From Chromobacterium haemolyticum DSM 19808 (GTDB lineage Bacteria > Pseudomonadota > Gammaproteobacteria > Burkholderiales > Chromobacteriaceae): a stretch of DNA of 64,000 nt. Below are positions 11,244 through 30,498 of this stretch, piece after piece; position 1 is the stretch's first letter; the number at the start of each line of letters is the position of its first letter. Below the pieces are notes generated by a model. It saw only the letters and a program-made list of their open reading frames with translations. It did no database searches and was not told the DNA's origin. Location: contig NZ_JONK01000016.1 in the NCBI RefSeq assembly GCF_000711885.1, positions 1 to 64,000 of the forward strand, written 5' to 3'. The translations under genes and the position numbers were made by a program.

Positions 11244-12323
11244 TTAATGACGCAGTCGACGAATCACCCCCAAACGACGGGCATGCCACAGCATCGCACG
11301 CTCAAGGGCCTCCTCTACATCGAAAGCCTCCTTCAAACCCAGTTTCGCTTGCACGTGACCTAAGTCAGGAAAGAAGTCGTGACAGCGGGCATTAGCAGTG
11401 GGTTGGCTCTTGTAAACAAGTGACGGAGTTGGCACAGTACGAGCGGCCACCATCTCCGCAACTACAGCGTGACTGGTAGGCCGAGCAGCACCGAGGTTGT
11501 AGATCTCTCCATCTTGGCCATCAACTAACATCCGCAAAAGCCAACATGCTGCGTCGCTTCCATAAAGATAGCTACGACGAGTGGCCCCATCCCCATGAAG
11601 ACGAATATCATTACCAGAAAGCGCATCGCGTATGAAATTATTGACCGCCCAAGGCGCATCTAATGACTGATACGGGCCAAGGAAGGTAAAAGCACGGGCA
11701 GTGCTAACGGGAATACGATACTGACTAGCGTAGATGCTCACCAAATTTTCGGCGGCGCGCCTCACCTCCGCATATACGTTATGTGCGCGGGTGAAATCCA
11801 AAACCCCGATATTTTCCTCACTCATGGCGAGATTCTGCATCTGTGTACCCAACACCAAGCCAGAGCTGATGTTCACGAAGCGCTGCAATAGCTCCAAGCG
11901 CGCGGAGGCAGCCAATGAGTATGCCATGCCATGTAGCGCAGTCTCGTGGACCCGTAGCGGTTCGGATGCATGTACGCGAGGATCGGCAATACCAGCCGCA
12001 AACAGCACCAACGTCGTATCCCGAGGAAGCTCAAAGGAGGAGCGCACATCTATGGCCTGTACTCGCACATCCTTTCGGCTGGCCAAGTGGGGATGATCTA
12101 GCTTCCAGGCTGTCGCCGAACGGCCAAGCAAATCTACACGAATTCGGTCACCCAACTTGTCGTTCAATGCAGCCACGGTCTCAGCGATCCACGTGCCAAT
12201 AAAGCCAGTCCCTCCTATAACGGCAATTCTATGCTCGGCCAAGCGCGCAGCCAAGCCCTCCTGGAGCTGCAGAGATACCAAGCAATCCTCACGTATACTC
12301 TGTTGTAAAACATCGTCATTCAT
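11244..12323 (-). CDS. NAD-dependent epimerase/dehydratase (extended SDR)
   Basis: A 359-residue extended short-chain dehydrogenase/reductase expected to modify a nucleotide-linked sugar. The cofactor loop IGGTGFIGTW is near residue 37 and the substrate part follows the Rossmann half. The active-site pair is unusual: where YxxxK is expected the sequence reads YAEVR, with Tyr184 and Arg188 (codon AGG at 11760-11762, one base from Lys AAG). I placed the start at ATG 12323 because CAGGAG lies seven bases upstream. The start overlaps the end of the aldolase gene (stop 12316-12318), indicating translational coupling. It probably reduces or epimerises a keto group of the branched sugar; exact role unknown. 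Confidence 0.8.
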   Translation of the reverse strand: MNDDVLQQSIREDCLVSLQLQEGLAARLAEHRIAVIGGTGFIGTWIAETVAALNDKLGDRIRVDLLGRSATAWKLDHPHLASRKDVRVQAIDVRSSFELPRDTTLVLFAAGIADPRVHASEPLRVHETALHGMAYSLAASARLELLQRFVNISSGLVLGTQMQNLAMSEENIGVLDFTRAHNVYAEVRRAAENLVSIYASQYRIPVSTARAFTFLGPYQSLDAPWAVNNFIRDALSGNDIRLHGDGATRRSYLYGSDAACWLLRMLVDGQDGEIYNLGAARPTSHAVVAEMVAARTVPTPSLVYKSQPTANARCHDFFPDLGHVQAKLGLKEAFDVEEALERAMLWHARRLGVIRRLRH

Positions 12324-13350
12324 CGCCATTCTCCTGCATGCTCGACTGCACTTCTTTGAGCGCCAGCGCCACTTCAAGAATCAAGCTCTCTTGGCCGGCC
12401 ACGGCTTTGCGGCGGCCCAACTCGAAAAAGATGTCACGCGGATCGACACCATGCTCGGCTCCGATACTGTTGACCTGTTTAATGAACCCCGAGAAGACGC
12501 CCGACATACCACTGGCAATGCTGGTCGATGAAATGTAAGGCATCGACTTCACCATCGTCTTCTCGGCTAGATCCGCTGCATCAAGCATTTTATATAGATC
12601 GATGCCTGTCTCGAATCCCATTTTCTGGAACACTGCCACAAGCACTTCAAGTTGGGCATTACCGGCCCCCGCTCCAAAACCACGTGCACTACCGTCGATA
12701 ATGGTTGCCCCGGCCTCCACAGCAGCGACCGAATTCGCGATGCCCATACCTAGGTTATTGTGCGCATGGAAGCCTACCGGAATGTTTAAAGCATCCACCA
12801 ATGTTGAAATACGGCGTGTCACGTCACCAGGGAGGTACGCTCCTGCTGAATCCATAATAATTAGCCCTTCTGCACCATAGGCTTCCATTTTTCGGGCCTC
12901 ATCCGCCAAGGTTTCTGGCGAAGCCATGTGACTCATCATCAGCACACCGTAGACTTCCTTACCGTGCTTACGCACATATTCAATGTGACGCTGGGTGATG
13001 TCCGCCTCGGTGCAATGAGAGGCAATACGGAAGACATCCACACCCAAATCCATCGCCATGGTTACATGGCGATGGATCGTGCAAAAGCCAGGGATCGCGT
13101 GAACAGCCATCTTGGAGCGTGTAAGATGCTCACGTGCGGTTTTCAGAATGATTTCATCGCTCAGAGCACACTCACCAACCAGCATTGATGAGGCTCCGAG
13201 TCCGTTGCCGTGCCCGACCTCGACAATTGGAACACCGGCGGCATTGGCTGCAGAGCAATATGTCGCAAACTGTTCTTGTGAGATCTGGTGACGTACAGCG
13301 TGGTTGCCATCGCGCAACGTCGGGTCGCTGATCAATATTTTCTTACTCAT
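12316..13350 (-). CDS. 4-hydroxy-2-oxovalerate aldolase-like (DmpG/MhpE family)
   Basis: A 344-residue class II pyruvate aldolase of the HMGL-like family. DPTLRDGNHAVRH gives the catalytic Arg13 and metal-binding Asp14, and GFHAHNNLGMG gives the metal ligands His195 and His197. In catabolism this enzyme splits 4-hydroxy-2-oxovalerate into pyruvate and acetaldehyde and works as a complex with the acylating aldehyde dehydrogenase encoded next door. Here the pair sits inside an O-antigen cluster with no aromatic-degradation genes, which suggests the reaction runs in the synthetic direction to supply a 2-oxo acid. ATG at 13350 has GGAG eight bases upstream. The gene is five bases after the dehydrogenase stop. 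Confidence 0.85.
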   Translation of the reverse strand: MSKKILISDPTLRDGNHAVRHQISQEQFATYCSAANAAGVPIVEVGHGNGLGASSMLVGECALSDEIILKTAREHLTRSKMAVHAIPGFCTIHRHVTMAMDLGVDVFRIASHCTEADITQRHIEYVRKHGKEVYGVLMMSHMASPETLADEARKMEAYGAEGLIIMDSAGAYLPGDVTRRISTLVDALNIPVGFHAHNNLGMGIANSVAAVEAGATIIDGSARGFGAGAGNAQLEVLVAVFQKMGFETGIDLYKMLDAADLAEKTMVKSMPYISSTSIASGMSGVFSGFIKQVNSIGAEHGVDPRDIFFELGRRKAVAGQESLILEVALALKEVQSSMQENGDE

Positions 13351-13355
13351 GCTAC

Positions 13356-14237
13356 TTACTCCCAGCGTTGGCGCGCGATACGTTCAGCAATACCAATAGC
13401 CGCGCAGTTGATAATGTCCAGGTTACCTGCATAACGAGGTAAATAATCACCATTACCCAGCACTTTGACCGTGGTCATGATCTTGCCACCCTCAAGCGTG
13501 GGAGGGACAATCAACTGGTAACCGGGCACATACTGCGTAATACGTTTCATCATCTCATCAACCGAAGCCCGGATTGCAGTCAAATCAGGGTTAGATATTT
13601 TCGCATAAATCGTGGTCTGCATATCGATGGGAGGATGCGCCGGATTCAGGATCAAAATTGCCTTGGTCTGACGTGCACGGCTAAACTTGACCAGAGCTTG
13701 TTCTGTTGTCTCGATATACTCGTCCAAATTGGCACGTGTAGCAGGACCTGCACTGCGAGAAGCAATGCTGGAGACGACCTCAATGTACTCGATATCATCC
13801 TGCACTGCTGCAATCGCATTAGCTATCGGCACCGACGCCTGCCCACCACAAGTGATCATATTGATATTCTGCGCGCGGCTGTCGATGATCTGCTCGGCAT
13901 TAATCGCTGGCACACACAGCTCACCTAACTTGGCTGGCGTCATATCCATGACGACCTTCCCGAGTTTTTTTAACACGGGCCAATGCTCCATATGTGCTGC
14001 TGCCGAGGTTGCATCGAACACGATGTCAATATCGTCAGCACGCTGGATAATAGCATCCAGGCCTCGATCTGAAATCGCCACCCCCAACTGACTCGCCTTT
14101 TGCATTCCATCGGAACGTAGATTACGTCCAACAAAGAGTACGCATTCCAATGCGTCCGAACGCATTGCCTTGATCAGCAAATCTGTGCCGATGTTGCCGG
14201 TGCCCAAGATGGCGACCCGGAGTTTTTGTTTTGCCAT
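13356..14237 (-). CDS. Acetaldehyde dehydrogenase, acylating (DmpF/MhpF family)
   Basis: A 293-residue CoA-acylating aldehyde dehydrogenase. The N-terminal Rossmann motif is AILGTGNIGTD and the catalytic cysteine is Cys130 in MITCGGQAS; the C-terminal half contains the conserved NPAHPPIDMQTT stretch. It is slightly shorter than catabolic DmpF/MhpF (about 304-316). The family interconverts aldehyde + CoA + NAD with acyl-CoA + NADH and channels the aldehyde to its partner aldolase. Its place directly upstream of the DmpG-like gene keeps the catabolic pairing, but all neighbours are nucleotide-sugar genes. I infer reduction of an acyl-CoA to an aldehyde that feeds the aldolase. Confidence 0.87.
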   Translation of the reverse strand: MAKQKLRVAILGTGNIGTDLLIKAMRSDALECVLFVGRNLRSDGMQKASQLGVAISDRGLDAIIQRADDIDIVFDATSAAAHMEHWPVLKKLGKVVMDMTPAKLGELCVPAINAEQIIDSRAQNINMITCGGQASVPIANAIAAVQDDIEYIEVVSSIASRSAGPATRANLDEYIETTEQALVKFSRARQTKAILILNPAHPPIDMQTTIYAKISNPDLTAIRASVDEMMKRITQYVPGYQLIVPPTLEGGKIMTTVKVLGNGDYLPRYAGNLDIINCAAIGIAERIARQRWE

Positions 14238-14264
14238 TGTAGTTTCCGTTACAAAAGAATGAGC

Positions 14265-15194
14265 TCAGGCAAGTAACGCGGCTGCCTCTTCGAGCACACC
14301 GGAAAGTGAGCAGTACGCTGGAACATATCCAAAAATTTCAGCCTTCCGGCTCAATGAGTAGTAATGAGGTTTCGCTCCGGTAGCGTTGATCGCCACACCA
14401 CTAGACGGAGGTGCGATTTCGTAGCGCAGCCCGAAACGCTCGTTCAGCGCCTGAAGCAGCGCTGGTTTGTCCACTGGCGCAGCAGTGTAACAGTCAATCC
14501 CAGTATTGGCAGGCGGAGCCTCTAGCACACGTTCAACCAGTTGATGGAAGTCTGCCGGGTGCAAATAATCACGCACCATGAAGTCAGAGGTCACGCGAAC
14601 CGTTTCACCGGTACGGATTGCGCGCAACAGGTCAGTGACGAAGAATCGCGCGGACAAATCCTGTGTACGGCTGAAATAATTAAAGACACGTAGGTCAACA
14701 ATCGCCTGATTGGTCAGCGCACGATGGCGCACTTCCGCATGCAACTTGGCCGTCGCATAGTACTCCTGTGGTGTGATCTGATTGATCGAAATGTGCGCCT
14801 CTGTGGAGTCACGGACCGGCTCGGCGAAGCTATTACCGTAAACAGCACCACTTGAGAGGAACAGGTAGCGACGTTGTGGATGCTTTTCCAATCCAGCCAA
14901 AATCATGTCGTCGAACTGACTGGTGATTCCGAAAATTGACGCCCCCATCTCGGCGGCACGACGCGGGTCACCAACACCAACGAAATTAATGACAACATCG
15001 TGCGGCACCTCGCCATAACGGTCATAAGTGTGCAGGGAACAAGCATCCTCCACCCCCTGAGCCTTCATCCATGCTGCCGTATCCGACAGATTGCGGGCGT
15101 ACAGTAATAGACTGGTGCGCCCCTGCTTTACGAACGATAGGATCAGATCCTTGGCAATCTGACTGCTCGCTCCGATGATGGCGATTGAACTCAT
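14265..15194 (-). CDS. NAD-dependent epimerase/reductase (SDR), YerF-like role possible
   Basis: A 309-residue extended SDR. The cofactor motif is IIGASSQIAKD (a GxxxxxG variant), the catalytic Ser region is LFLSSGAVYGN, and YYATAK supplies the Tyr-x3-Lys pair. I chose ATG 15194 because it makes an ATGA overlap with the stop of the ThDP-enzyme gene and has AAGGGG six bases upstream; the longer frame adds only seven residues. In yersiniose synthesis a reductase (YerF) reduces the ketone left by the ThDP enzyme YerE. By position and family this product is a candidate for an equivalent step, which the sequence alone does not prove. Confidence 0.82.
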   Translation of the reverse strand: MSSIAIIGASSQIAKDLILSFVKQGRTSLLLYARNLSDTAAWMKAQGVEDACSLHTYDRYGEVPHDVVINFVGVGDPRRAAEMGASIFGITSQFDDMILAGLEKHPQRRYLFLSSGAVYGNSFAEPVRDSTEAHISINQITPQEYYATAKLHAEVRHRALTNQAIVDLRVFNYFSRTQDLSARFFVTDLLRAIRTGETVRVTSDFMVRDYLHPADFHQLVERVLEAPPANTGIDCYTAAPVDKPALLQALNERFGLRYEIAPPSSGVAINATGAKPHYYSLSRKAEIFGYVPAYCSLSGVLEEAAALLA

Positions 15195-17020
15195 AGGATG
15201 CCCCTTTTTCCGCACAATGCCACTCCTTCAGCAGTAGCGCGAGCAAGCTCTTGTTGCAGAGCTTCTTCTGAGAGATGCGGGAACATATTATGCAGTGGCG
15301 AGGAACGCATACGACCGTCTGGCAACTTAACCGAGACGACGGTAGGGATTATTTTCTGGTTACGCATCGCTACGATCTCACAGACCACAGGACCATCGAT
15401 CGCAAGGGTCTTGCGGACCTGTTCATGAAGATCATCAGAGGTCTCGCAGCACACATAGGGCAGTTCGAAGGACTCCGTCAGCGCGCGTATCGAAGGAATA
15501 AACACACCACTATCCGAATCCGCGCCAACGTAATGGCCAGCGCAGAACTCACGTTGCGTGTTACGCATCGAGACATAGCCATCGTTGTTGACAACGAACA
15601 GCTTGAGATCCAGATTGTACTCTTTCATCGTCGCAAGCTCGTGAAGATTGGTCATAAGTGAGCCGTCGCCGGTGACGCAAACCGTGGTGCCTGGCAACCC
15701 AGTCGCAGCCGCACCATTGGCTGCGGGTAGGGCGAAGCCCATCGCGCCCAGTGAACCTGAGGAGATGAACCGCTGTCCCTGCTTCAGCCTCAGTGCCTGG
15801 CCCATGACATAGAATGCAGAGCCTGCATCGGTTACGACGCAGGCTCCTTCACCGAGATGCTGGCTAAGTACTTCGACAAACTCATAAAAATTTATCGCTC
15901 GCTCAGCCTTTTCATGCGGTTCGTTGGCTACTGAAAAACGCTCCTTCCACGACGCACAACATTTACGCCACTCCTTATTCACCTTGAGCTGCAGCGGCTG
16001 CATATACAGCGCATCAATAAACTCTCTTGCGCCAGCCTGGATCTTCAAGTTTACGCCCACTTGCTCACGAGCCAATATTGCCGCATCCAGTTCAACCTGA
16101 ACCTTAACCGCACTGGGTGCGAACAGTTCGAGTTCCCATCCTGTGGTCTGCGCGTGCAAGCTGCTACCGATACTCAGGATCAGGTCCGCCGTCTGGATCG
16201 CAAAGTTGCCAGGGCGGTCACCCTTAGGTCCAGGGTGGCCAACAAAGCAAGAATGCTCATAGGGCAATATGTCCTTGCCTAGCTGGGTAGTTACCACCGG
16301 AATATCTAGTCGATCCACTAAACGTCGAAATGTACCAACGGCACCAGCACAACGGACACCATGTCCCGCGAGAATCAGTGGTCTCTTTGCTCTCCCGAGC
16401 AAGAGTAACAGTTCTGCCATCTGATCTGGCGTTACCGTTGCTGCAACTTCCTTCTCAGGAACGAAGCTCTCCAGTTCGTCTGGTTCAATCTGCGCACCCT
16501 GGATGTCTAATGGTAGATCCAGTAATACCGGCCCTGGCCGACCACTAGTAGCCAAGAACAAAGCCTTCTCAAGGTGGTATCGGATGGTTTTGGGATCCTG
16601 CACCATCACGGCATACTTGGTTAGGGATCGGACAATCGGCACAATATCCACCTCAAAAGTTCCGAACTGGCGCAAGTCGTCGATACTGGAATGCTGGATA
16701 GTCTGGGTGCTCTTGCTCTGACCGGTCAGGAACAGTATCGGGGTACTGTCCTGCCACGCACCAGCAATGCCGGTGACGAGGTTAGTCGCGCCCGGCCCGC
16801 TGGTGGCATAGCAGACACCCAAATGACCACTCCGCCGCGCATAACCGTCGGCGGCCATCGCACTAGCTTGCTCATGGTGCTGAGCCATATACTCAAGTCC
16901 GCCCGGTCGTCCAAGGGTATCCACCAAATGCATCATCATGCCACCATTGAGCATGAAAACCTTGTGCACACCCTGCTGAAGCAGATAATCAGCGATGTAA
17001 TCAGCAACTCGTATTGTCAT
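15191..17020 (-). CDS. Thiamine-diphosphate-dependent enzyme, acetolactate-synthase/YerE-like
   Basis: A 609-residue ThDP enzyme with the three-domain acetolactate synthase layout. The catalytic glutamate is Glu50 in HHEQASAMAADGYAR, the central domain follows, and the C-terminal ThDP/Mg motif starts GDGS at residue 451 and ends VVNND at 480. No small regulatory subunit or ilv gene is nearby. In the yersiniose pathway a homologue (YerE) decarboxylates pyruvate and adds the acetyl unit to C4 of CDP-4-keto-3,6-dideoxyglucose; the ddhA-D genes beside this one make exactly that acceptor. The additional aldolases suggest a donor larger than pyruvate. Both ends overlap neighbours through ATGA, so it is translated as part of a coupled operon. 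Confidence 0.87.
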   Translation of the reverse strand: MTIRVADYIADYLLQQGVHKVFMLNGGMMMHLVDTLGRPGGLEYMAQHHEQASAMAADGYARRSGHLGVCYATSGPGATNLVTGIAGAWQDSTPILFLTGQSKSTQTIQHSSIDDLRQFGTFEVDIVPIVRSLTKYAVMVQDPKTIRYHLEKALFLATSGRPGPVLLDLPLDIQGAQIEPDELESFVPEKEVAATVTPDQMAELLLLLGRAKRPLILAGHGVRCAGAVGTFRRLVDRLDIPVVTTQLGKDILPYEHSCFVGHPGPKGDRPGNFAIQTADLILSIGSSLHAQTTGWELELFAPSAVKVQVELDAAILAREQVGVNLKIQAGAREFIDALYMQPLQLKVNKEWRKCCASWKERFSVANEPHEKAERAINFYEFVEVLSQHLGEGACVVTDAGSAFYVMGQALRLKQGQRFISSGSLGAMGFALPAANGAAATGLPGTTVCVTGDGSLMTNLHELATMKEYNLDLKLFVVNNDGYVSMRNTQREFCAGHYVGADSDSGVFIPSIRALTESFELPYVCCETSDDLHEQVRKTLAIDGPVVCEIVAMRNQKIIPTVVSVKLPDGRMRSSPLHNMFPHLSEEALQQELARATAEGVALCGKRGIL

Positions 17021-17850
17021 GTTGGGTCTCTCAGGGAAATACTCGCAGCAGATGCCTCCCGGTTGCGGATAGCTCGAACTAAGGAAGCTGCCCCCTCCTC
17101 AATAGCTTGTCGGATGAGAAAGGTATCAACGCCGTAAACTAGGACATTAGCCCCCAAGCTCAGGGCACGCTCGATGTCAGCCTCACTGCGTACCATCATC
17201 CCTGCTGCCTTGCCGGCCGCACGTATGCGCGCGATAGCCTCTTCAACAATCTGTACAACTTTAGGATGTCGGGTATCCCCATCGCACCCCAACGTGACAG
17301 CCAAGTCGTAGATACCCATATAGACAACATCAATGCCCGGAGTCGCGCAAATTTCTTCAAGGTCCATGAGGGCGCTACAAGACTCGATGATCACGGTAGT
17401 CAACGAAAAACCGTTATCGAGCTTGCCCGAACGATTGTCGGCTGGATTTGCATAATTCGCAGCGCGCGTAAATGGGTTGTACCCTCGTACCCCAGCTGGG
17501 GCGTACTTCGCCATACCCACGACAGCCTCTGCATCTTTAACATCACGAATCTGTGGCACAACAATCCCATGCGAACCAAGATCCAATGCCCATTGCGCTG
17601 CGGACGCATTCAACCCCGGAATCCGCACCAGTGGTGCGGACCCAGCACCTTCGACAGCACGCACACACGCATCTAACGAGGTCAGATCGAAGATCCCGTG
17701 TTCCATGTCCAAGATCACAAAATCAAGACCACTCAAGCCCATGATCTCTGCCACAACCGGCGAGGGGATGATCGACCAGATCCCGATTATCGGCTTGCCA
17801 TCGGCCAGCTTAGCCTTTAGCGGATTCGTCATCTGTAAACGCAGGCTCAT
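17017..17850 (-). CDS. HpcH/HpaI-family aldolase
   Basis: A 277-residue class II pyruvate aldolase of the HpcH/HpaI type (HpaI, GarL, RhmA, YfaU relatives). Family residues are present: the base His in LDMEHGIFD, the pyruvate-binding Arg in LVRIPG, AGVRGYN, and the metal ligands Glu in VIIESC and Asp in YMGIYDL. Such enzymes join pyruvate to an aldehyde to make a 4-hydroxy-2-oxo acid, or run in reverse. The gene overlaps the ThDP-enzyme start by ATGA, and the product is a plausible supplier of a longer 2-oxo acid to it. ATG 17850 is preceded by a GGGGAT site. The actual aldehyde partner is unknown. Confidence 0.85.
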   Translation of the reverse strand: MSLRLQMTNPLKAKLADGKPIIGIWSIIPSPVVAEIMGLSGLDFVILDMEHGIFDLTSLDACVRAVEGAGSAPLVRIPGLNASAAQWALDLGSHGIVVPQIRDVKDAEAVVGMAKYAPAGVRGYNPFTRAANYANPADNRSGKLDNGFSLTTVIIESCSALMDLEEICATPGIDVVYMGIYDLAVTLGCDGDTRHPKVVQIVEEAIARIRAAGKAAGMMVRSEADIERALSLGANVLVYGVDTFLIRQAIEEGAASLVRAIRNREASAASISLRDPT

Positions 17851-17865
17851 GTTATCCCCGTGTCT

Positions 17866-19221
17866 TCAAAAATTCAGCCCAAAAAACTCTTCCAACTTGC
17901 CCACAATGTAATCCAGCTGCTCCTGGCCCAATCCAGGGAAAGTACCCAGCCAAAAAGTTTGATTCATCACAACATCGGTATTAGTCAAATCACCACTGAC
18001 ACGGAAATTACGGCCTGACATATAAGGTTGCTTCGTCAGATTGCCTGCAAACAGCAAACGCGTACCGATTTTGTTTTCCTCTAGGAAGTTGATCAAATCG
18101 GCTCGCTTTACACCAGCACTATCCTTAACAATCAATGGAAAGCCAAACCAAGACGGCTCACTATTTGGAGTCGCTTCCGGCAGGTGCAGAAACTGCTCGA
18201 CACTGGCCAGACGGCTCTTCAGATAAGTAAAGTTGGCGCGGCGCTTGGCAATGAATTCCTCGACACGATCCATCTGCGCCAAAGCGCAGGCTGCCTGCAT
18301 GTCTGAGATCTTCAGGTTGTAGCCCAGGTGACTGTAGGTGTACTTGTGGTCATAGCCGTCCGGCAGATCGCCTCCCAAGTCTTTTTTCGTCCAGCAGAAT
18401 CGCTTATCGCAGGTATTGTCTTTGCCAGGAGCGCAGTAGCAGTCTCGACCCCAATCGCGGAAAGACTCTGCAATCAGCTTGAGATCGGCGTTGTTGGTAA
18501 AAACGGCACCACCCTCACCCATCGTGATATGGTGCGCCGGGTAGAAGCTCAGTGTCGCGATGTCACCAAAGGTGCCGACCAACTGGCCATTGTAGGTTGC
18601 GCCCAAGGCATCACAGCAATCTTCCACCAGCCAGAGATTGTATTTCTTGCACAGTGCTGTCACCACTTCCAGATTGAATGGGTTGCCCAAGCTATGGGCC
18701 AGCATAATGGCTTTGGTCTTTGGAGTGATAGCAGCTTCAATCTTGCTAGCGTCGATGTTATGCGTGGCGAGATCCACATCAACGAACACCGGGACGGCGC
18801 CAAACTGGAGGATGGGGTTAACCGTCGTAGGGAAACCGGCTGCCACACCGATGACTTCATCTCCCTGTTTGATGGCGCGATCACCCAACTTGGGGCTGGT
18901 CAGTGTAGAGAATGCCACCAGGTTAGCAGAGGAACCGGAGTTCACGGTAATCAGATACTTCACTCCCAGAAACTTCGCCAGCCGCTCTTCAAACATGGCA
19001 TTGAAGCGGCCCGTCGTCAGCCAGCCATCAAGTGAGGCATCCACCATCAACTGTAGTTCTTTAACACCGATGACCTTACCCGAAACCGGAACTACACTTT
19101 CGCCGGCTACAAAGGGCTTGGGCGCGTGGGCGATTTCAGCGTACTGCTGCACTAGTTCGCTAATTTGCGAGCGGAGTTTATCGAGTTGCGGCTGGAAATT
19201 AACGGCAGAAACTGTACTCAT
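17866..19221 (-). CDS. ddhC: CDP-4-keto-6-deoxyglucose 3-dehydratase DdhC (RfbH/E1)
   Basis: A 451-residue PMP- and [2Fe-2S]-dependent dehydratase that removes the C3 hydroxyl of CDP-4-keto-6-deoxyglucose together with reductase DdhD. The fold is that of aminotransferases, but the PLP-lysine is replaced by histidine (His230 in [14 protein letters not shown]), the hallmark of the 3-dehydrases. The iron-sulfur cysteines are visible as Cys261, Cys263, Cys271 and Cys276. Length is close to E. coli/Salmonella RfbH (about 437). The ATG overlaps the ddhB stop as ATGA. With DdhA, B and D it gives CDP-4-keto-3,6-dideoxyglucose. Confidence 0.94.
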
Positions 19222-20300
19222 TTTTGACTCTGATATTGTGTAATTTGTTCAAGGCAACAAGCGCGCATATCTGCGCCGGACAACCAGGCCTGATGCCAGT
19301 CAGTAATGCGGGAAAGCGCTGTTTGCAACGACCATCGTGGCGACCAACTCAGGCGTTGCCGTGCTTTGGAAATATCCAACTTAAGGTAGCTGGCCTCATG
19401 TGGGTGATCCCCCTCCTGTAAAGACCATGTCGCGCCCTGTCCCCAAGTTTCGCAGAGTTGCTCTACGATCCATTGAACGGGGCGTGCATCTTCATCGCAG
19501 GGACCGAAGTTCCAGCCCTCTGCATCGGCTTGACCATTTTCGTACAGCCGCTCCGCCAGCAGGAGGTAGCCCGACAGCGGCTCCAGCACATGCTGCCAAG
19601 GACGGATAGCGTGCGGATTGCGAATTTGAACGGGTTGCTGTTTTTCCAAAGCACGAAGAATGTCAGGCACAAGTCTATCCAGTGCCCAATCACCGCCGCC
19701 AATGACATTACCTGCTCGCGCCGTTGCCATGGCAATGCCTTCATTCTTGAGAAAGGACTTGCGATACGCACTACTCACCAGTTCCGCACAACCCTTGCTA
19801 TTCGAATACGGGTCATACCCCCCCATCGGCTCATCTTCTCGATAGCCCCAGAGCCATTCCTTATTCTCGTAGCATTTGTCAGTGGTGACATTGACGATTG
19901 CGCGAACACTGCCTGCCTTGCGTGCGGCCTCTAAAACATGCACGGTACCCATGACATTTGTGGCATAGGTTTCAACAGGTAGTTGATACGATAGACGAAC
20001 CAAAGGCTGTGCTGCCATATGGATCAGAATTTCGGGTTGAAAGTCTACAACTAACGCACAGATTTTTTCATAGTCGCGGATATCTGCGACCTGATGATTC
20101 ATACCCTCAGCCACTCGGGCTACATCAAACAGTGCGGGTGTCGTGGGCGGCTGAAGCGCGATGCCTCGCAATTCAGCTCCCATATCCTGAAGCCAGAGAG
20201 AGAGCCAGCTTCCTTTAAAGCCGGTATGTCCCGTCAACAGTACGCGTTTGTTACGCCAAAACTCCGGCCTGGTCTGCTGCGGTATCACTTCGAACCCCAT
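19218..20300 (-). CDS. ddhB: CDP-glucose 4,6-dehydratase DdhB (RfbG)
   Basis: A 360-residue extended SDR that converts CDP-glucose to CDP-4-keto-6-deoxyglucose. The cofactor loop is [13 protein letters not shown], the active-site region is [11 protein letters not shown] with YDPYSNSK providing Tyr-x3-Lys, and the C-terminal half has the substrate motif [11 protein letters not shown] placed the start at ATG 20300 (MGFEVIPQ), giving the family length; it overlaps the ddhA stop by 16 bases, and the upstream ten codons are ddhA sequence in another frame. It forms an ATGA overlap with ddhC. Confidence 0.92.
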
Positions 20301-21064
20301 TTTTTCCAGGGAGCCTTGCCACTCATCCACAGCTCTTCCAGCAAGTGCTTGTCTCTCAACGTATCCATAGGCTGCCAGAAACCTTGGTGCTCATAGGCCA
20401 TCAGTTGCCCATCCTCAGCCAGCCGCATCAACGGCTCCTGTTCCCAGACGGTGCTATCGCCTTTGATATATTCCAGCACTTTAGGACTCAGAACAAAGAA
20501 TCCCCCATTAATCATTGCACCATCACCCTTCGGCTTTTCCTTGAAGCTCATGACTTGATGACTCTGAATATCCAGCGCACCAAACCGTCCCGGCGGATAG
20601 GTGGCCGTTAATGTTGCGGCTTTTCCATGCTGGCGATGGAATTCAATGGTTGCTGAAATATCAATATCGCTGACGCCATCACCATAAGTTAAGCAGAAAG
20701 CTTCTTCATTTTTAACATAATCCGCGACCCGACCGAGGCGACCACCTGTCATAGAGTCATCCCCGGTATCAACCAGTGTCACCTTCCAGGGTTCGGCACG
20801 CTTTTCATGAACATCCATACTGTTAGCTTGCATATCGAACGTCACATCCGACATGTGCAAGAAGTAGTTCGCAAAATACTCCTTGATGAAATAGCCTTTA
20901 TAACCACAACAAATAATGAAATCGTTAATTCCGTGGTAAGAGTACATCTTCATGATGTGCCAAAGAATCGGCTTGCCCCCTACTTCTACCATCGGCTTGG
21001 GACGAACTGACGTCTCTTCACTCAGTCGCGTACCGAGTCCCCCTGCAAGAATCACTGCTTTCAT
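20285..21064 (-). CDS. ddhA: Glucose-1-phosphate cytidylyltransferase DdhA (RfbF)
   Basis: A 259-residue nucleotidyltransferase that makes CDP-glucose, the first step of the 3,6-dideoxyhexose route. The N-terminus [17 protein letters not shown] is the pyrophosphorylase signature, followed by [30 protein letters not shown] is typical of RfbF. ATG 21064 has AAAGGA six bases upstream and gives the usual length of about 257. Its 3' end overlaps ddhB. Confidence 0.94.
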
Positions 21065-21090
21065 TTCGATCCTTTCTATTCGATATTCAA

Positions 21091-22107
21091 TCAATTGCTT
21101 GCCGAGCACACAAAAGCATCGGAGTAGAACTGCTTGGCAGGCAAGCCAGCTTCTGTGAGTATTTTTCTTGCGCTATGAATCATGGCATCCGATCCACAGG
21201 CGTAGACAAACGCATTTTTCCAATCAGACACCAAATTGAGCATCACATGCTGTACATAGCCCGTCTCACCTGCCCAGTTTTTATGCGCACGAGACTGAAC
21301 CGGGATATAGTTGTACCCGGGCACAATGTTGGACACATCAAGATAAAAGTCACCAGGCTGGCGACCACCCCACAGTACGGTTACCGAACTGGGTTTTTTC
21401 TCAACCGGCAAGTGCGCGATGGATTCCAACATAGACTTGACCGGGGCAATCCCAGTACCCGTTGCGAGGAAGAACAAGTCAATATTCGCGGTGTCTCGTA
21501 ACCAAAAAGTACCAAGCGGACCATTGATACGCAGAAGATCGTCAACTTTGGCCTTATTGAACCAGTACTCACTCATCGCCCCTCCACCAACCTTGCGAAT
21601 ATGGAGCTCAAGTGTCTTTTCAGCACAGTGGGAATTCGCCAAGGAATAACTCCGACGCACGCCACCAACACCAATGACATCAATATACTGACCGGGAATA
21701 AATTCAAAATTAGCTGTCGGCGGAAGACGTAACACTACCTTGATTACATCTATGGCAATGTGTTCCAGAAAAGATATGCGACAAGGCAGGGTCTTGGGTA
21801 TGGGGATCGCAACATTACCAAGATCTTCCACGTCGAGTTCAACGTCCGATTGAATGGATCGTGAGCAGGTTAAAACCCACCCTTCATTCAGCTCCGTAGA
21901 GGTCAGCCCCACCTCATCCAACAGTGGGTATGTCGACCCATTCAGCACCTTTGCCTTACAAGTGCTACAACGCCCCGTCCGACAACTGTAAGGAAGCTTG
22001 ATTCCAGAAGCTGCTGCCGCATCCAATATGGAGGCATTCTCATTTACTTGAAATTGACGCCCGTCTGCTAGTTTAGCAATTGCCACGGCTTTAGCTTGCT
22101 CCACCAA
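21091..22107 (-). CDS. ddhD: CDP-6-deoxy-delta-3,4-glucoseen reductase DdhD (RfbI/AscD/E3)
   Basis: A 338-residue iron-sulfur flavoprotein that supplies electrons to DdhC for C3 deoxygenation. The N-terminal plant-type [2Fe-2S] ferredoxin domain carries CRTGRCSTC (with a further Cys in VLTCSR). The FAD domain has RRSYSLAN and the NAD domain has [13 protein letters not shown]. Length and order match the E3-type reductases. It stands 26 bases upstream of ddhA and 19 bases after manC. Confidence 0.93.
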
Positions 22108-22126: not shown

Positions 22127-23572
22127 TTAAATAACTCTCCCATAACTATCTTCAAATCGAACAATGTCATCCTCCCCCAAATACCCCCCCGACTGCACTT
22201 CAATAATCTCTAACGGAACCGTCCCAGGATTGGACAACCGGTGGATCTCACCAAGAGGAATGTAAGTTGACTGATTTTCGGTCAAGAGGGTTATTTTTTC
22301 GCCATTAGTTATCTCAGCAGTCCCTTTAACAACGATCCAGTGCTCTGCCCTGTGGTGGTGTTTTTGCAAGCTCAGACTAGCTTTTGGCTTGACCTGAATC
22401 CGTTTGACCTTAAAGCGGACACCTTCGTCGATACTGTCGTACCACCCCCAAGGGCGGTGGACTTTGCGATGGAGGGTATGCTCTTCGCGGCTTTGCTTCT
22501 GAAGTCCATTTACGATGTGCTTAACATCCTGGCTGCATGATTTGTTCACAACCAGAACAGCGTCGGGGGTTTCTATGACGATAATATCCTCTACACCAAC
22601 CAGACTCACCAGTCGGCTGGTGGCATGGACAAGCGTATTGCGGCTGCCTGTGGTCAACACATCACCAATGTATGCATTGCCTCTTTCATCTTTTGGCAGC
22701 ACCTTCCAAACGGCATCCCAGGCCCCCAGGTCACTCCAGCCGGCATCCAGCGGCACCATCTTGATAGAAAAGCGACTACCCGGGCAGTGCTCTATCACTG
22801 CGTAATCAACAGATTCGGCGGGAATAGCCGCGAACTCGCTTTTATCGGGCCTAACGAATTGCTCATCAATTGATCGTTTAGCCCAGGCTGAGCGTGTCAC
22901 GGCCAAGATATCTGGACGGAATGTTTCAAGTGCTTGCAACCATGTGGAGGCTTTCAGCACAAACATGCCCGCATTCCAGAAATACCCTCCCTCTTCTAGG
23001 TAGATCTTGGCGGTGTTTTCATCAGGCTTTTCGACAAATCGCCGGACCGTCTGAGTCTTGATACCAACAGTTGCACTGTCGGTCTGGATATAGCCATAGC
23101 CCGTTTCTGGACGGTCAGGTGTCACCCCCAAGATCACAATCGTACCGTTTGCCGCTTCTTTAATCGCTGCATGCGTCGCCACGGCGAACGCTCCAGAATC
23201 GCTTACTGTCTGATCGGCAGAAGTCACCACAAGAACTGGGTCACGCCCCTCTTCCGTTGCCGCCAGTGCCGCCAAGGTGAGCGCAGGTGCGGTATTGCGG
23301 CCGGTCGGCTCTAGCAAAGCGCAGCCCAACTCAATACCAATTTCTCGCAATTGCTCCGCGGCCAGAAAGCGATGATCCTCGCCAGTCACGATCAACGGTG
23401 AGGCAAACTGCATATCAGCATTACCCAAACCTGATAAGCGTTGAGCAGCTTGCTGAAACAGGCTTTCGTTACCTGTCAGACACAGAAATTGTTTGGGGAA
23501 GCCGGTTCGAGACAACGGCCACAAGCGCGTCCCGGAGCCGCCACAAAGAATTACAGGAGTAACACTAATCAT
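22127..23572 (-). CDS. manC: Mannose-1-phosphate guanylyltransferase / mannose-6-phosphate isomerase
   Basis: A 481-residue bifunctional type II PMI-GMP (ManC/AlgA/XanB class). The N-terminal pyrophosphorylase signature is ILCGGSGTRLWPLSR, followed by FPKQFL and FVEKPDE. The C-terminal cupin isomerase domain carries RPWGWYDSID and the metal-site region QKHHHRAEHWIVVKG. It makes GDP-mannose. No phosphomannomutase (manB) or GDP-mannose-modifying gene (gmd, fcl, rmd) is in the window, so mannose itself is the likely sugar. It is the first gene of the cluster as transcribed. Confidence 0.93.
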   Translation of the reverse strand: MISVTPVILCGGSGTRLWPLSRTGFPKQFLCLTGNESLFQQAAQRLSGLGNADMQFASPLIVTGEDHRFLAAEQLREIGIELGCALLEPTGRNTAPALTLAALAATEEGRDPVLVVTSADQTVSDSGAFAVATHAAIKEAANGTIVILGVTPDRPETGYGYIQTDSATVGIKTQTVRRFVEKPDENTAKIYLEEGGYFWNAGMFVLKASTWLQALETFRPDILAVTRSAWAKRSIDEQFVRPDKSEFAAIPAESVDYAVIEHCPGSRFSIKMVPLDAGWSDLGAWDAVWKVLPKDERGNAYIGDVLTTGSRNTLVHATSRLVSLVGVEDIIVIETPDAVLVVNKSCSQDVKHIVNGLQKQSREEHTLHRKVHRPWGWYDSIDEGVRFKVKRIQVKPKASLSLQKHHHRAEHWIVVKGTAEITNGEKITLLTENQSTYIPLGEIHRLSNPGTVPLEIIEVQSGGYLGEDDIVRFEDSYGRVI

Positions 23573-24252: not shown

Positions 24253-25767
<1,515 letters not shown>

Positions 25768-28700
25768 TTAGTCCTTGAGCAGGCTGTCGAGCTTGGCCGC
25801 CTTGGGTTTGATCAGCCAGAAGTAATCGACGTAATCGTCGAAGTTCTCCAGCATCGCCTTGGCCGTCTCGGAGCCGGTCAATTCAACGTGCTTGGCGATC
25901 TTTTCCAATAGATAAGCGCGGTACATGCCCATGGCCTCGCCGTTGATCAGGTGGATATCGATCAGCTCGTTGTTGTAGCGATAAGCGAATTTCTCATTCG
26001 GGTCGTAGACGAAGGCGAAGCCGCCTGTCATGCCGGCGCCAAAGTTGTAGCCGGTTTCGCCGAGCACGATGACCGTGCCGCCGGTCATGTATTCGCAGCA
26101 ATGGTCGCCGGCGCCTTCGATGACGGCCAGCGCGCCGGAGTTGCGCACCCCGAAACGCTCTCCCGCCACGCCTGCGGCGAACAATTGCCCACCGGTAGCC
26201 CCGTAGAGACAGGTATTGCCAATGATGATGGACTCGCCTGCCCGATATCCCGCGCCCTTGGGCGGATAGATGGTCACTCGGCCGCCGGCCATGCCTTTGC
26301 CTACATAGTCGTTGGCGTCGCCTTCCAGCTCCAGGTGCAAGCCGGATGCGTTCCACACGCCGAAGCTTTGCCCGGCACTGCCGCTGAACTTGATCTTGAG
26401 GCAGCCGAACGGCAAGCCAGCGGCTCCGTGAACGCGGGCGATCTCGCCGGACAAGCGCGCGCCGATGGAACGGTGGGTGTTCTCGATGGGGTAGCTCAGT
26501 TCCAGCATCTGCTTATTGTGGATGGCGGATATGGCGTCCTGCAGAATGGCTTCCGCCAATTCGCCCTTGTCAAAGGAAGGGTTGCTGGCGCTGACGCAGA
26601 AACGCGGCTCGCTGTCCGGCACCCGGCCTTGCGACAACAAGGGCGACAGGTCCAGCTTCTGCTGCTTGTCGGTATCTCCGGCCGCCAGGCTCAGCAAGTC
26701 CATCCGACCGATCAGCTCTTCCATATTGCGCACGCCCAGCTTGGCCATCCACTCGCGGGTTTCACGCGCGATGAACAGGAAATAGTTCATCACCATTTCC
26801 GGCAAGCCGGTGAAGTATTTGGAGCGCAGCTTGATTTCCTGGGTAGCCACGCCGGTGGCGCAGTTGTTCAGATGGCAGATGCGCAAGTATTTGCAGCCCA
26901 GCGCCACCATCGGGCCGGTGCCGAAGCCAAAGCTTTCCGCGCCCATCATCGCCGCCTTGATCACATCCAGGCCGGTCTTCAAGCCGCCGTCGGTCTGTAC
27001 CCGCACCCGGCCCCGCAGGCCATTGGCGCGCAGCACTTGCTGCGCCTCAGACAAGCCCAGCTCCCATGGGGAGCCTGCGTATTTGACCGAGGTCAGCGGC
27101 GAGGCGCCGGTGCCGCCGTCGTAGCCGGAAATAGTGATCAGGTCAGCGTAGGCCTTGGCCACGCCGGCGGCGATGGTTCCGACGCCGGGCTCGGCCACCA
27201 GCTTGACCGACACCAGCGCGGACGGATTGACCTGCTTGAGGTCGAAAATCAGTTGCGCCAAGTCTTCGATAGAGTAGATGTCATGATGCGGCGGCGGCGA
27301 GATCAGGCTGATGCCTTCCTTGGCATGGCGCAGCCGCGCAATCAGGCCGGACACCTTGTCGCCCGGCAGCTGGCCGCCCTCGCCCGGCTTGGCGCCTTGC
27401 GCCACTTTGATCTGCAGCACTTCGGCATTGACCAGGTAATGCGGCGTAACGCCGAAGCGCCCCGAAGCCACCTGCTTGATCTTGGACATTTTCTCTGTGC
27501 CGTAACGCGCGGCGTCCTCGCCCCCTTCGCCAGAGTTGGAGCGGCCGCCCAGGCGGTTCATCGCGATCCCCAGCGCTTCATGCGCCTCCGGCGACAAAGC
27601 GCCCAGGGACATGCCCGCGGAGTCGAAACGCTTGAGGATGGCTTCCACCGGCTCCACTTCGTCGATAGAGATGGGCTCGCCCAATGGCTGCACCTGCATC
27701 AGATCTCGCAGCATCGCCACCGGGCGTTGGTTCACCGCCTCGGCGTACTGCTGATAGGCCTGGTAGTCGTCGTTCTGCACCGCCTTTTGCAGCAAGGTCA
27801 CCACATCGGGGTTGTAAGCGTGGTATTCCTCGCCGTGCACGTACTTGAGCAAGCCGCCCTGTGAGATCGGCCGCATCGGGTTGAAGGCGAAACGCGCCAG
27901 CTTTCGTTGATCGTCCTCGAAGTCGGCAAAACCCGCGCCGGACACTCGCGACACCGTGCCCTTCAGGCACAGCTCCACCACCTCTTCATGGATGCCCACT
28001 GCTTCGAACAGCTGTGCGCCGCGATAGGAGGCGATGGTGGAGATACCCATCTTGGACAGTACTTTGAGCAAACCTTTGTTGATGCCCTTGCGATAGTGCT
28101 GCAAGGCTTCGTTGAGCTTGAGTTTGACCTCGCCGCTCTGTACCAACTCGATGATGCTCTGGTAAGCCAGATAGGGATAGACCGCGGTGGCCCCGTAGCC
28201 GATGATGCAGGCCATCTGGTGCGCGTCGCGCACTGTGCCGGTTTCCACCAGAATATTGGTCTTGCAGCGCAAACCACTGTCGATCAATGCGTGATGCACC
28301 GCGCCGGTGGCGAACAAGGCCGGGATGGGCAGGCGTTGCGCCGTCACATGGCGGTCGGACAGCACCACGATGACCGTGCCCTCCCGGACCGCATCCACAA
28401 CATGCCGGGTCAGCGTTTCCAATGCCTGGCGCAAATCGGTTTCGGTGGGGTCGTAGCACAGGTCGAAAGTCGTCGCCTTCAGATAAGGCTCCGGCCGCGT
28501 GGTCACGCGGGTGAATTTCTCGTGCGACAGCACCGGAGAGCGCACTTCCAGCCGCTTGGCGTGCTCGGCGCTCTCTTCGAACATATTGCGTTCCGGCCCA
28601 AACACCGTATTCAGCGACATCACCACCGCTTCGCGGATGGGGTCGATAGGCGGGTTGGTCACCTGGGCGAATTGCTGGCGCAGATAATCAAACGGCGAGC

Positions 28701-30216
28701 GCACTTTCCGGCTCAACACCGCCATCGGGGTGTCGTCTCCCATTGAGCCCACCGCCTCCTGGCCGTCTTCGGCCAGTACACGCAGGATTTGGTCTCGCTC
28801 TTCAAAGCTGATATTGAACAGCTTCTGCAAACGCGCCAGTTCGTCCTTGGACAAAGGCTCGACTCCGGCATCGTCCTCGATCGACAGCTCCAGGTATTTG
28901 GCGCTGTCCTTAATCCATTGCCGATACGGCTTGGCGCTCTTGAGCTGGGCGTCGATCTCCTCCGGCAACAACAGCTCGCCGGTGGCCAGGTCCGCGGCGA
29001 ACAGCTGGCCCGGCTTGACCCGGCCCTTGCGCACCACATTTTCGGGCTGGTAGTCCCACACCCCCACTTCGGAGGCGATGGTCAGGATATTGTCGCGTGT
29101 CAGCACCCAACGCGCCGGCCGCAGGCCATTGCGATCCAACATACAGGCGGCGTAGCGACCGTCGGTGAGCACGATGCCGGCCGGGCCGTCCCACGGTTCC
29201 ATATGCATGGAGTTGAATTCGTAAAAGGCGCGCAAATCCTTATCGGTCGAATCGACATTCTGCCAAGCCGGCGGCACCAGCAGGCGCAGCGCGCGGAACA
29301 GCGGAATGCCCCCCATCAGCAGGCCTTCCAGCATATTGTCCAGCGACATCGAGTCGGAGCCGTCGGTCTGCACGATGGGACGCACCGCGTCCATGTCCAG
29401 ATGCGGAGATGCCATGATGCGCTCGCGCGCTCGCGCCCAATGACGATTGCCCTGCACAGTGTTGATTTCGCCGTTGTGAGCGAGAAAACGGAAAGGCTGC
29501 GCCAGCTTCCATTGCGGCCAGGTATTCGTGGAGAAGCGCTGGTGGAACACGGCCAGGCTGGACTCGAAACGGGAGTCGTTCAAATCCAGGAAAAATTTGG
29601 GCAGGTTCTCCGGCGTGACCAAGCCTTTGTAGGACAGGGTGTGCGGCGACAAAGTCGGCAGATAAAAAAACGGGTCGTCTGCCTTATTGGCTTTCTCAGC
29701 CTGGCGACGACCCATATACAAACGGCGCTGGAACATTAATTCGTCCATGCCGAATGGACAGTTAACAAAGACCTGGACCATGGCGGGCAGAGATGCCAAG
29801 GCCGCCTCCCCACAGGCGCTGTTGTCGGTGGGAACCTGTCGGAAACCCGCCACCTCCAAGCCTTGAGACTCCAGAAACTCGCGCAGACGCCGCAAGCTGC
29901 GCTCCCCCTGCTCCGGATCGGGATGGTGGAACACCAGCCCTGCGGCGTACACTGGCTTCAGCGTCAAGCCGGCCTCCGCGGCGACTTCGCGCAAAAACCC
30001 GTCCGGCTTGCGAAACAGCAGACCACAGCCGTCGCCGGACTTGCCGTCGGCGGCCACAGCCCCGCGATGAGTCAGCTTGGCCAGCGAGGAAATGGCGGTA
30101 TTCACCAGCCAGTGACTGGGTTTATCGTCAAGCTGGGCGATCAAGCCGAAACCGCAGCTGTCTTGTTCGAAGTCCGGATGGTACAGGGTGCCCTGTAGCC
30201 AGCGTTGTCTGTCCAT
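25768..30216 (-). CDS. gltB: Glutamate synthase (NADPH) large subunit
   Basis: A 1482-residue GltB, the usual length. An N-terminal glutamine amidotransferase domain begins after a short propeptide, with the N-terminal-nucleophile Cys in [11 protein letters not shown]. The central and FMN-binding synthase domains include [18 protein letters not shown]-type sequence and the [13 protein letters not shown] loop. The [3Fe-4S] cysteines lie in [19 protein letters not shown], and a C-terminal GXGXG beta-helix domain has repeated glycines ([19 protein letters not shown]). I chose ATG 30216 because AGCAGGA lies six to seven bases upstream and the family begins here; the longer open frame is unlikely to be coding. 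It is divergent from the phospholipase D gene. Confidence 0.95.
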
Positions 30217-30498
30217 AGCTTTGTCCTGCTTATAATGTGAAACGAATGTTTCGATTCTAAGGGCAAGGAGCTTGACCCTGCAACCGGTTTTTGTGCACCG
30301 CATTAGACTATAAAAATCATTATGTTACATCGTGTTTTTTAATTTTTCGATGTCGAAAAATCGTATTTTTACGACGGATTAATTGTGATTTTGTGACGCG
30401 GACGTTCAATAAAACGACTGTCAAGCTACCTTGTCAAGGACATCCAAAATGGCCATTTCAATCAAAACAAGTATATTGTCAAACAATAGCCAATAATA
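30217..30498. promoter_or_regulatory. Divergent promoter region gltB / phospholipase D-like gene, with inverted repeats
   Basis: This AT-rich 282-base divergent region carries two adjacent perfect inverted repeats: TTTTTCGA-TG-TCGAAAAA at 30343-30360 and TCGTA-TTTT-TACGA at 30361-30374. GTCAAG is repeated near 30420-30440. These are possible operators or stem-loops; no regulator gene is adjacent. Several TATA-like hexamers exist on both strands, but I cannot fix a promoter. Confidence 0.4.

What the first reader, a model, noticed from the sequence alone, without database searches (positions are those of the whole stretch)
11244..22107. Putative pathway for a branched higher-carbon CDP-sugar inside an O-antigen cluster
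ddhA-D are complete and should give CDP-4-keto-3,6-dideoxyglucose, yet no abequose/paratose/tyvelose/ascarylose finishing enzyme is seen. The next six genes are a HpaI-type pyruvate aldolase, an acetolactate-synthase-like ThDP enzyme, an SDR, an acylating aldehyde dehydrogenase, a DmpG-type aldolase and a second SDR. They are closely spaced, in part by ATGA overlaps. Known family knowledge: in yersiniose synthesis, YerE (ThDP) adds a two-carbon unit from pyruvate to C4 of the same CDP-sugar and YerF reduces the product; that needs only two genes. Inference: here the aldehyde dehydrogenase and aldolases first make a 4-hydroxy-2-oxo acid, the ThDP enzyme decarboxylates it and adds a C4-or-longer acyl unit to the sugar, and the SDRs reduce the ketones. 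The result would be a sugar of ten or more carbons, of the general kind of caryophyllose.
Basis: partly seen in the sequence, partly recalled or inferred. Interest (0 to 1): 0.9.

Follow-up and report, generated by a model that had tools for sequence, protein, structure and literature searches.

The report
Erwiniose-type branched-sugar gene cassette
A bacterium's surface-sugar gene cluster carries a ten-gene cassette that most likely builds erwiniose or a close relative, a rare ten-carbon branched sugar known from potato soft-rot bacteria; one of its enzymes carries changes that should make it build the mirror form of the usual intermediate.

Summary
ddhD-A-B-C and, in the same direction, an HpaI-type aldolase, a YerE-like ThDP enzyme, an SDR, an acylating acetaldehyde dehydrogenase (AcDH), a DmpG-type aldolase (HOA) and a second SDR form one tight operon. 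The ThDP clade spans three phyla. New to my knowledge: the ten HOAs I compared from ThDP clusters form one clade; ten of ten lack Tyr290 and nine of nine readable lack Leu87, the two BphI positions whose double change switched stereospecificity from 4S to 4R. 4R fits erwiniose (name recalled). Around related ThDP genes the donor-making gene is swapped: DmpG-type, HMGL-like or NeuB in 40 of 79 loci. The role of HpaI stays open. No biochemistry was done.

The parts
21091..22107 (-). ddhD-like 2Fe-2S/FAD/NAD(P) reductase (electron donor for ddhC)
   Evidence: PF00111, PF00970, PF00175; 36-37% to the first gene of the same cassette in L155/L159
20285..21109 (-). ddhA, glucose-1-phosphate cytidylyltransferase
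   Evidence: TIGR02623 483 bits, cut-off 300; 79% in L155
19218..20330 (-). ddhB, CDP-glucose 4,6-dehydratase
   Evidence: TIGR02622 512 bits, cut-off 278; 64% in L155
17866..19221 (-). ddhC (RfbH), CDP-6-deoxy-4-keto-glucose 3-dehydrase
   Evidence: PRK15407 739 bits, cut-off 423; 69% in L155
17017..17850 (-). HpaI/GarL/YfaU-type class II pyruvate aldolase, catalytic residues kept, substrate unknown
   Evidence: PF03328; best solved relative GarL 1dxe; alignment; 54% in L155
15191..17020 (-). YerE-like ThDP carboligase, predicted to take 4-hydroxy-2-oxopentanoate (ErwE-type)
   Evidence: best solved relative JanthE 8rph, E 5e-105; 60% in L155; clade with L155/L159/L042/L043; HEQ and GDG...NN motifs
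14265..15194 (-). SDR1, extended short-chain dehydrogenase/reductase, predicted ketoreductase of the branch (ORF open to 15215)
   Evidence: PF01370; 54% in L155; alignment of 7 sequences
13356..14237 (-). acylating acetaldehyde dehydrogenase (acetyl-CoA to acetaldehyde)
   Evidence: TIGR03215 401 bits, cut-off 282; only PF09290 match found in the genome; 66% in L155
12316..13350 (-). DmpG-type 4-hydroxy-2-oxopentanoate aldolase with His84 and Phe286 in place of BphI Leu87 and Tyr290, predicted 4R product
   Evidence: TIGR03217 381 bits, cut-off 286; residues; tree
11244..12329 (-). SDR2, extended SDR, predicted second reductase/epimerase of the CDP-sugar (ORF open to 12377)
   Evidence: PF01370; no curated model at its cut-off; 43% in L155
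9373..10776 (-). putative Wzx-type flippase (position, length and hydrophobic make-up only)
   Evidence: no Pfam family at 0.001; position after SDR2
22127..23572 (-). manC, GDP-mannose synthesis; neighbour, not part of the cassette
   Evidence: TIGR01479 630 bits, cut-off 373

Best explanation
The operon makes a CDP-activated 10-carbon branched sugar, erwiniose or a close variant, for the O-antigen. DdhA-D make CDP-4-keto-3,6-dideoxyglucose. AcDH reduces acetyl-CoA to acetaldehyde; the DmpG-type aldolase joins it to pyruvate, predicted to give (4R)-4-hydroxy-2-oxopentanoate because its two stereo-determining positions are changed (His84/Phe286 for Leu87/Tyr290 of BphI). The YerE-like ThDP enzyme decarboxylates this acid and adds the 3-hydroxybutanoyl unit to C4 of the sugar; one SDR reduces the new ketone, giving a 3,6-dideoxy-4-C-(1,3-dihydroxybutyl)-hexose. 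The HpaI-type aldolase and the other SDR have a conserved but unassigned part. Shown: gene content, order, families, motif residues, phylogeny. Inferred: every catalytic step here, the stereochemistry and the product.
For: [quoted passage not shown] P. atrosepticum polysaccharide is Gal-Man-Rha with erwiniose side chains (PMC8657720, passage), and its island ECA1420-ECA1441 (22 locus numbers, 24,265 bp) is annotated 'rfb, nah' (PMC2718846, passages); nahM/nahO are, as I recall, names of HOA/AcDH genes. G833 and G1112, of one genus with 25 genomes searched, have ddhD-A-B-C-HpaI-ThDP-SDR1-AcDH-HOA-SDR2 in identical order, with manC by tblastn and wza-wzb-wzc-, manB-, rml- and galF-like genes by my reading of protein starts. 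ThDP clade window+L155+L159 (SH-aLRT 99), then Paenibacillus L042 (92) and Pedobacter L043 (97), all with HpaI, AcDH and HOA. AcDH and HOA are the only such genes found in the genome (PF09290, E 1e-60), so an aromatic-degradation role is unlikely. HOA: Tyr290 absent in 10 of 10 cluster HOAs, present in 18 of 18 others; one clade 97/98. ThDP pocket changed: Gln122 (JanthE) to Phe in 5 of 5 against 0 of 84.
Against: No enzyme was assayed and no polysaccharide of this organism is known. Only 3 of 25 genomes of that genus hold a ThDP match at E 1e-100 or better, and one of the three (G1101) has a NeuB-type pair instead. Erwiniose needs one aldol step, yet an intact HpaI-type aldolase is kept directly upstream of the ThDP gene. 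The R configuration of erwiniose C7 rests on a recalled name (D-gulo); only the caryophyllose name was read. SDR2 is only 41-43% identical to its counterparts, so a reduced centre could differ. The BphI double variants carried Asn or Trp at 87, not His, and were shown for cleavage.
Confidence: 0.82

Rival explanations
1. A longer, 12-carbon sugar: HOA makes 4-hydroxy-2-oxopentanoate, the ThDP enzyme or another decarboxylase frees 3-hydroxybutanal, HpaI adds a second pyruvate, and the resulting C7 acid is grafted on the sugar (a deoxy-caryophyllose).
For: HpaI lies within about 20 bases of ThDP in the window, L155, L159 and in 6 of the 7 HpaI loci (109 bases in the seventh), always with a DmpG-type (4) or HMGL-like (3) gene; its catalytic residues are kept in 10 of 10. 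Caryophyllose, with a C6 branch, exists (passages).
Against: The same gene order occurs in what is very probably the erwiniose producer, whose sugar has 10 carbons. I know of no free-aldehyde step in this family.
Confidence: 0.07
2. Plain yersiniose: the ThDP enzyme uses pyruvate as YerE does and the aldolase/AcDH genes serve another purpose.
For: Same acceptor sugar and enzyme family; JanthE accepts pyruvate as well as longer acids (PMC12188165, passages).
Against: AcDH and HOA are the only copies found in the genome and lie inside the operon; the closest ThDP relatives L155, L159, L042 and L043 all have them; yersiniose needs only yerE and yerF (known pathway).
Confidence: 0.05
3. The sugar has another branch: HOA or HpaI uses a different aldehyde (formaldehyde, propanal, lactaldehyde) so that the product is a homologue of erwiniose.
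For: ErwE itself accepts 4-hydroxy-2-oxo acids of 4 to 6 carbons; HpaI-type aldolases take many aldehydes (PMC8560999, passages).
Against: AcDH here passes the acetylating equivalog cut-off by 119 bits, which points to acetaldehyde.
Confidence: 0.06

Closest known systems
Erwiniose pathway / ErwE of Pectobacterium atrosepticum
   Same: Acceptor CDP-sugar genes, YerE-like ThDP enzyme, hydroxy-2-oxo-acid donor logic; the ten-gene order is identical in the presumed Pectobacterium genomes G833 and G1112
   Different: Different host (probably Chromobacterium), 36-79% protein identity gene by gene, different neighbouring genes
Caryophyllose pathway (Burkholderia caryophylli LPS, Mycobacterium marinum LOS, MMAR_2332)
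   Same: YerE-like enzyme with a hydroxy-2-oxo acid donor; C4-branched sugar with a deoxy position beside the new carbinol
   Different: C6 branch, 12 carbons; its donor-making genes were not examined here
Yersiniose pathway (YerE/YerF)
   Same: CDP-4-keto-3,6-dideoxyglucose acceptor and YerE-like enzyme
   Different: Donor is pyruvate, two-carbon branch, no aldolase/AcDH genes (and known pathway)
JanthE (8rph), solved YerE-like enzyme
   Same: Closest solved relative of the window's ThDP enzyme by sequence, E 5e-105
   Different: CDG instead of GDG motif; its five docking hot-spot columns read otherwise in the window; natural substrates unknown
DmpFG / BphIJ / MhpEF aldolase-dehydrogenase pair of aromatic catabolism
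   Same: Same two protein families, adjacent genes
   Different: Separate clade; Leu87/Tyr290 replaced; run here presumably in the synthetic direction

Membership tests
Erwiniose-type (ErwE) cassette | ddhA-D genes for CDP-4-keto-3,6-dideoxyglucose | tested here: met
   ddhD by domains only
Erwiniose-type (ErwE) cassette | ThDP enzyme in the same clade as that of the presumed Pectobacterium cluster | tested here: met
   SH-aLRT 99; 60-61% identity
Erwiniose-type (ErwE) cassette | Same gene order of the ten genes | tested here: met
   two of two such clusters fetched
Erwiniose-type (ErwE) cassette | The comparison genomes are Pectobacterium and are erwiniose producers | tested here: inconclusive
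   Genomes unnamed; inferred from genus size, wza...galF-like setting, sugar genes, and 22 genes in 23.6-24.3 kb, by the ends I chose, against ECA1420-1441 of 24,265 bp
Erwiniose-type (ErwE) cassette | ThDP enzyme uses 4-hydroxy-2-oxo acids and not pyruvate | not testable with these tools
   needs assay
Erwiniose-type (ErwE) cassette | Erwiniose in the polysaccharide | not testable with these tools
   needs NMR/GC-MS
YerE-like ThDP lyases | Catalytic Glu and ThDP motif (GDG...N) kept; nearer to a YerE-like enzyme than to acetolactate synthases | tested here: met
   three acetolactate-synthase-like outgroup rows fall apart at 100
Yersiniose pathway | Two-gene branch module without donor-making genes | tested here: not met
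   AcDH, HOA, HpaI in the operon
Catabolic DmpG/MhpE aldolases | Leu87 and Tyr290 (BphI numbering), 4S product | tested here: not met
   residues only; product not tested
Abequose/paratose/tyvelose/ascarylose clusters | Recognisable C4 reductase or epimerase of these sugars | tested here: inconclusive
   No curated model at its cut-off for either SDR; no named reference enzymes were compared

The most novel reading that the evidence does not exclude
YerE-like enzymes are the fixed core of a mix-and-match system for grafting carbon branches on CDP-4-keto-3,6-dideoxyglucose, in which unrelated donor-making modules (DmpG+AcDH, HMGL-like, NeuB-type PEP-dependent synthases, with or without HpaI) set the branch; and the DmpG-type aldolases recruited to it form one clade that evolved inverted, 4R stereochemistry by the same pair of positions that engineers changed in BphI. 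The NeuB version would fuse a sialic-acid-like 2-keto-3-deoxy acid, minus its carboxylate, on to another sugar.
Probability: 0.5. Interest if true: 0.7.

Novelty: new member of a known kind. Interest (0 to 1): 0.5.

Why it matters
It takes a rare higher-carbon sugar pathway, reported from Pectobacterium, to hosts in other phyla, gives a full parts list for making the donor acid, and predicts that a clade of pyruvate aldolases has the opposite stereochemistry to the textbook DmpG/BphI enzymes. The last point is directly testable with a purified enzyme and would be of use in making (4R)-hydroxy acids. The swap of donor modules around one carboligase gives a way to predict unknown branched sugars from sequence.

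Tried and rejected
Considered and rejected: aromatic catabolism (no second HOA or AcDH found in the genome; no hydratase or ring-cleavage family among the ten proteins scanned); plain yersiniose; a first idea that HpaI supplies the 4R acid because DmpG-type enzymes give 4S (weakened once the HOA residues were read). Plasmid search for the ThDP enzyme at 1e-80: no match. Ten paper searches ran. None asked exactly for the stereochemistry of HOAs in sugar clusters, the library is open-access only, and the ErwE and YerE-survey papers (anie.202113405 = PMC9306805, anie.202404045, anie.202403535) and PMC2742863 are not held; so 'new' is only to my knowledge. Passages seen in other papers: PMC6963963 says the EPS/O-antigen island of P. 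atrosepticum is only partly conserved in the genus (figure and table section); PMC12227328 describes other Pectobacterium EPS clusters with no hit for erwiniose or acetolactate; PMC4509608 (yersiniose genes in Pseudomonas), PMC9912281, PMC8125463 and PMC9671505 added little.

Limits and dropped rows: locus L056 was lost to my overlap filter, so counts are of 79, not 80; hits are tblastn at 1e-5, weak ddh hits included, and short contigs hide neighbours. 'HMGL-like' rests on weak hits to the HOA (22-31%) or to two 570-residue proteins, of which only that of L061 was confirmed by Pfam. One search lists only the best hit per place. In one search L048 cannot be read at position 87. The 18 comparison HOAs were E. 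coli MhpE, DmpG (1nvm) and 16 from one order (15 of 200 genomes with a match at 1e-60, the window's own included); 8 of those 16 have a hydratase-like gene in the short flank, the rest are assumed catabolic. The ThDP tree is a quick one and its JanthE branch very long. Lys268, Thr567 and Tyr297, as in the window clade, also occur in other rows.
Full report
What is there. On the - strand the window holds, in order of transcription, manC, ddhD, ddhA, ddhB, ddhC, an HpaI-type aldolase, a ThDP enzyme, SDR1, an acylating acetaldehyde dehydrogenase (AcDH), a DmpG-type aldolase (HOA), SDR2, a probable flippase, transferases, a weak O-antigen-ligase/polymerase match and an initiating-transferase-like protein (the last by reading only). 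The 2-kb steps from 2001 to 24000 are at 42-53% G+C, those from 26001 on at 56-65% (cassette 52.3%, rest 61.0%). HpaI/ThDP, ThDP/SDR1 and HOA/SDR2 overlap; AcDH and HOA are 5 bases apart. The finding is right as an observation.

Where it sits. The assembly (5.03 Mb, 63 contigs) belongs to a genus of which 19 genomes were searched; 14 of the 19, the own genome included, have a ThDP match at E 1e-100 or better. One congener contig has the same length and layout as a Chromobacterium vaccinii contig found by name, so the genus is very probably Chromobacterium. The congeners' ThDP enzymes are 37-42% identical to the window's. In the 14 stretches fetched (13 congeners and one genome of the same family) the best hits per place, at 1e-8, list no HpaI, AcDH or HOA; four checked congener loci have a NeuB-family protein near the ThDP gene. 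The window's cassette is thus another version than that of its kin.

Known counterpart. A 2025 review, of which I read section 2.1 whole, states that ErwE of P. atrosepticum couples hydroxy-functionalised 2-oxo acids (4-hydroxy-2-oxobutanoate, -pentanoate, -hexanoate), not pyruvate, to CDP-4-keto-3,6-dideoxyglucose to form erwiniose, that MMAR_2332 is the caryophyllose counterpart, and that over 200 YerE-like enzymes had been listed in silico (PMC12247030). Erwiniose is a 10-carbon branched sugar in the side chains of a Gal-Man-Rha polymer of P. atrosepticum (PMC8657720, one passage).

Orthologous cluster. A search of 394 genomes of one order, reached by way of an E. coli rpoB hit, had as its best match genome G833, with a ThDP enzyme 59% identical to the window's; the next best was at 37%. 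Its genus gave a second, G1112, at 60%; 3 of the 25 genomes had a match at 1e-100 or better. G833 and G1112 both have ddhD, A, B, C, HpaI, ThDP, SDR1, AcDH, HOA, SDR2 in exactly the window's order (36-79% identity), with manC further on (45-46%) and wza-wzb-wzc-, manB-, rml- and galF-like genes by my reading of the protein starts. The published P. atrosepticum island ECA1420-ECA1441, 24,265 bp, is annotated 'rfb, nah' (PMC2718846, passages); 22 genes of G833 span 23.6 or 24.3 kb, by the ends I choose. I take G833 and G1112 to be Pectobacterium at about 0.9.

How the family is built. Of the 79 that my script scored, within 6 kb of the ThDP gene 7 have a DmpG-type HOA, 6 AcDH, 7 HpaI, 15 an HMGL-like protein, 18 a NeuB, and 39, 40 and 44 a ddhA, ddhB and ddhC hit, weak ones included. 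DmpG-type, HMGL-like and NeuB never occur together, so 40 of 79 have one of them; 39 show none, some on short contigs. Eight NeuB genes are within 20 bases of the ThDP gene. All 7 HpaI genes accompany a DmpG-type (4) or HMGL-like (3) gene. AcDH+HOA without HpaI are in L069, L077 and L086. In a tree of 93 rows the window's ThDP enzyme groups with G833/G1112 (99), then L042 (92) and L043 (97); the other five DmpG-type loci lie elsewhere, and the three module labels together need 5 changes against a shuffled mean of 21.0.

The aldolase. Wild-type BphI uses or makes only the 4S acid; its L87N/Y290F and L87W/Y290F variants cleaved the 4R and not the 4S acid (PMC3962088, passages); E. coli HpaI gives both (PMC8560999, passages). 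The window's HOA has His84 and Phe286 at these places (1nvm chain 88 and 291, which I take as BphI 87 and 290). Of ten HOAs from ThDP clusters, ten lack Tyr290 (Phe in nine, Val in L069) and nine of nine readable lack Leu87 (His in seven, Phe in L077 and L086). Of 18 others, 18 have Tyr290 and 17 Leu87. The ten form one clade, 97/98. The acid made should then be 4R. As I recall, erwiniose is 3,6,8-trideoxy-4-C-[(R)-1-hydroxyethyl]-D-gulo-octose, whose C7 is R by my working; the related caryophyllose is named as a D-gulo-decose in print (PMC9026286, passage). This agreement is the most useful new point, but it rests on residues and a recalled name.

The ThDP pocket. At the five positions named as hot-spots in JanthE (PMC12188165, passages) the window clade of five reads Thr/Asn, Lys/Arg, Gln/Thr, Trp/Tyr and Thr/Ala, and next to the first one Phe replaces Gln in 5 of 5 against 0 of 84 other rows (I shifted JanthE numbers by one from the chain). 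This fits a changed substrate but proves nothing, and some of these residues occur outside the clade.

What is open. The HpaI-type protein keeps the aligned His, Arg, Glu and Asp of this fold in 10 of 10 sequences and has its own motif (GxYD, RG[YF][NS]P; roles of the residues recalled, the metal ligands Glu and Asp and the Arg also in PMC8560999). It is well kept next to the ThDP gene, yet erwiniose as published needs one aldol step. It may be a second, backup or proof-reading aldolase, or act on another aldehyde.

Verdict.

Noticed in passing
L015 10135-12393, L023 6343-7218, L024 5546-6670, L026 8267-9319: In four other genomes of the genus the ThDP locus has a NeuB-family (PF03102) protein, with methyltransferase and radical SAM genes in L015; a predicted longer-branched sugar.
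   Followed up: partly
L026 11121-15690: One congener has NeuB-ThDP beside FabA-like, LuxC acyl-CoA reductase, LuxE and AMP-binding genes, as if an aldehyde were made from a fatty-acid-type precursor for the branch.
   Followed up: no
L161 7681-10521: In G1101, of the same genus as the erwiniose-type G833, a NeuB-ThDP pair lies in a 19-kb stretch with no ddhA or ddhB hit (one weak ddhC-like hit); it may serve another glycan.
   Followed up: no
L068, L111, L117: Two ThDP genes in tandem, their starts about 1.8 kb apart.
   Followed up: no
L083, L102: Methanobacteriaceae (archaeal) contigs with ddhA-C hits and a YerE-like ThDP gene.
   Followed up: no
L061 1304-5516 (similar layout in L065, L067): HpaI-ThDP with a 570-residue HMGL-like protein and, in L061, a HAD-family and an LdpA_C-type Fe-S protein upstream; a further donor module with unknown chemistry.
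   Followed up: partly
window 339-1175: Transposase with rve and HTH_21 domains, IS3-type by my reading, at the far end of the O-antigen cluster.
   Followed up: no
window 24253-30303: Glutamate synthase genes (gltD- and gltB-like) flank the cluster on the other side.
   Followed up: no
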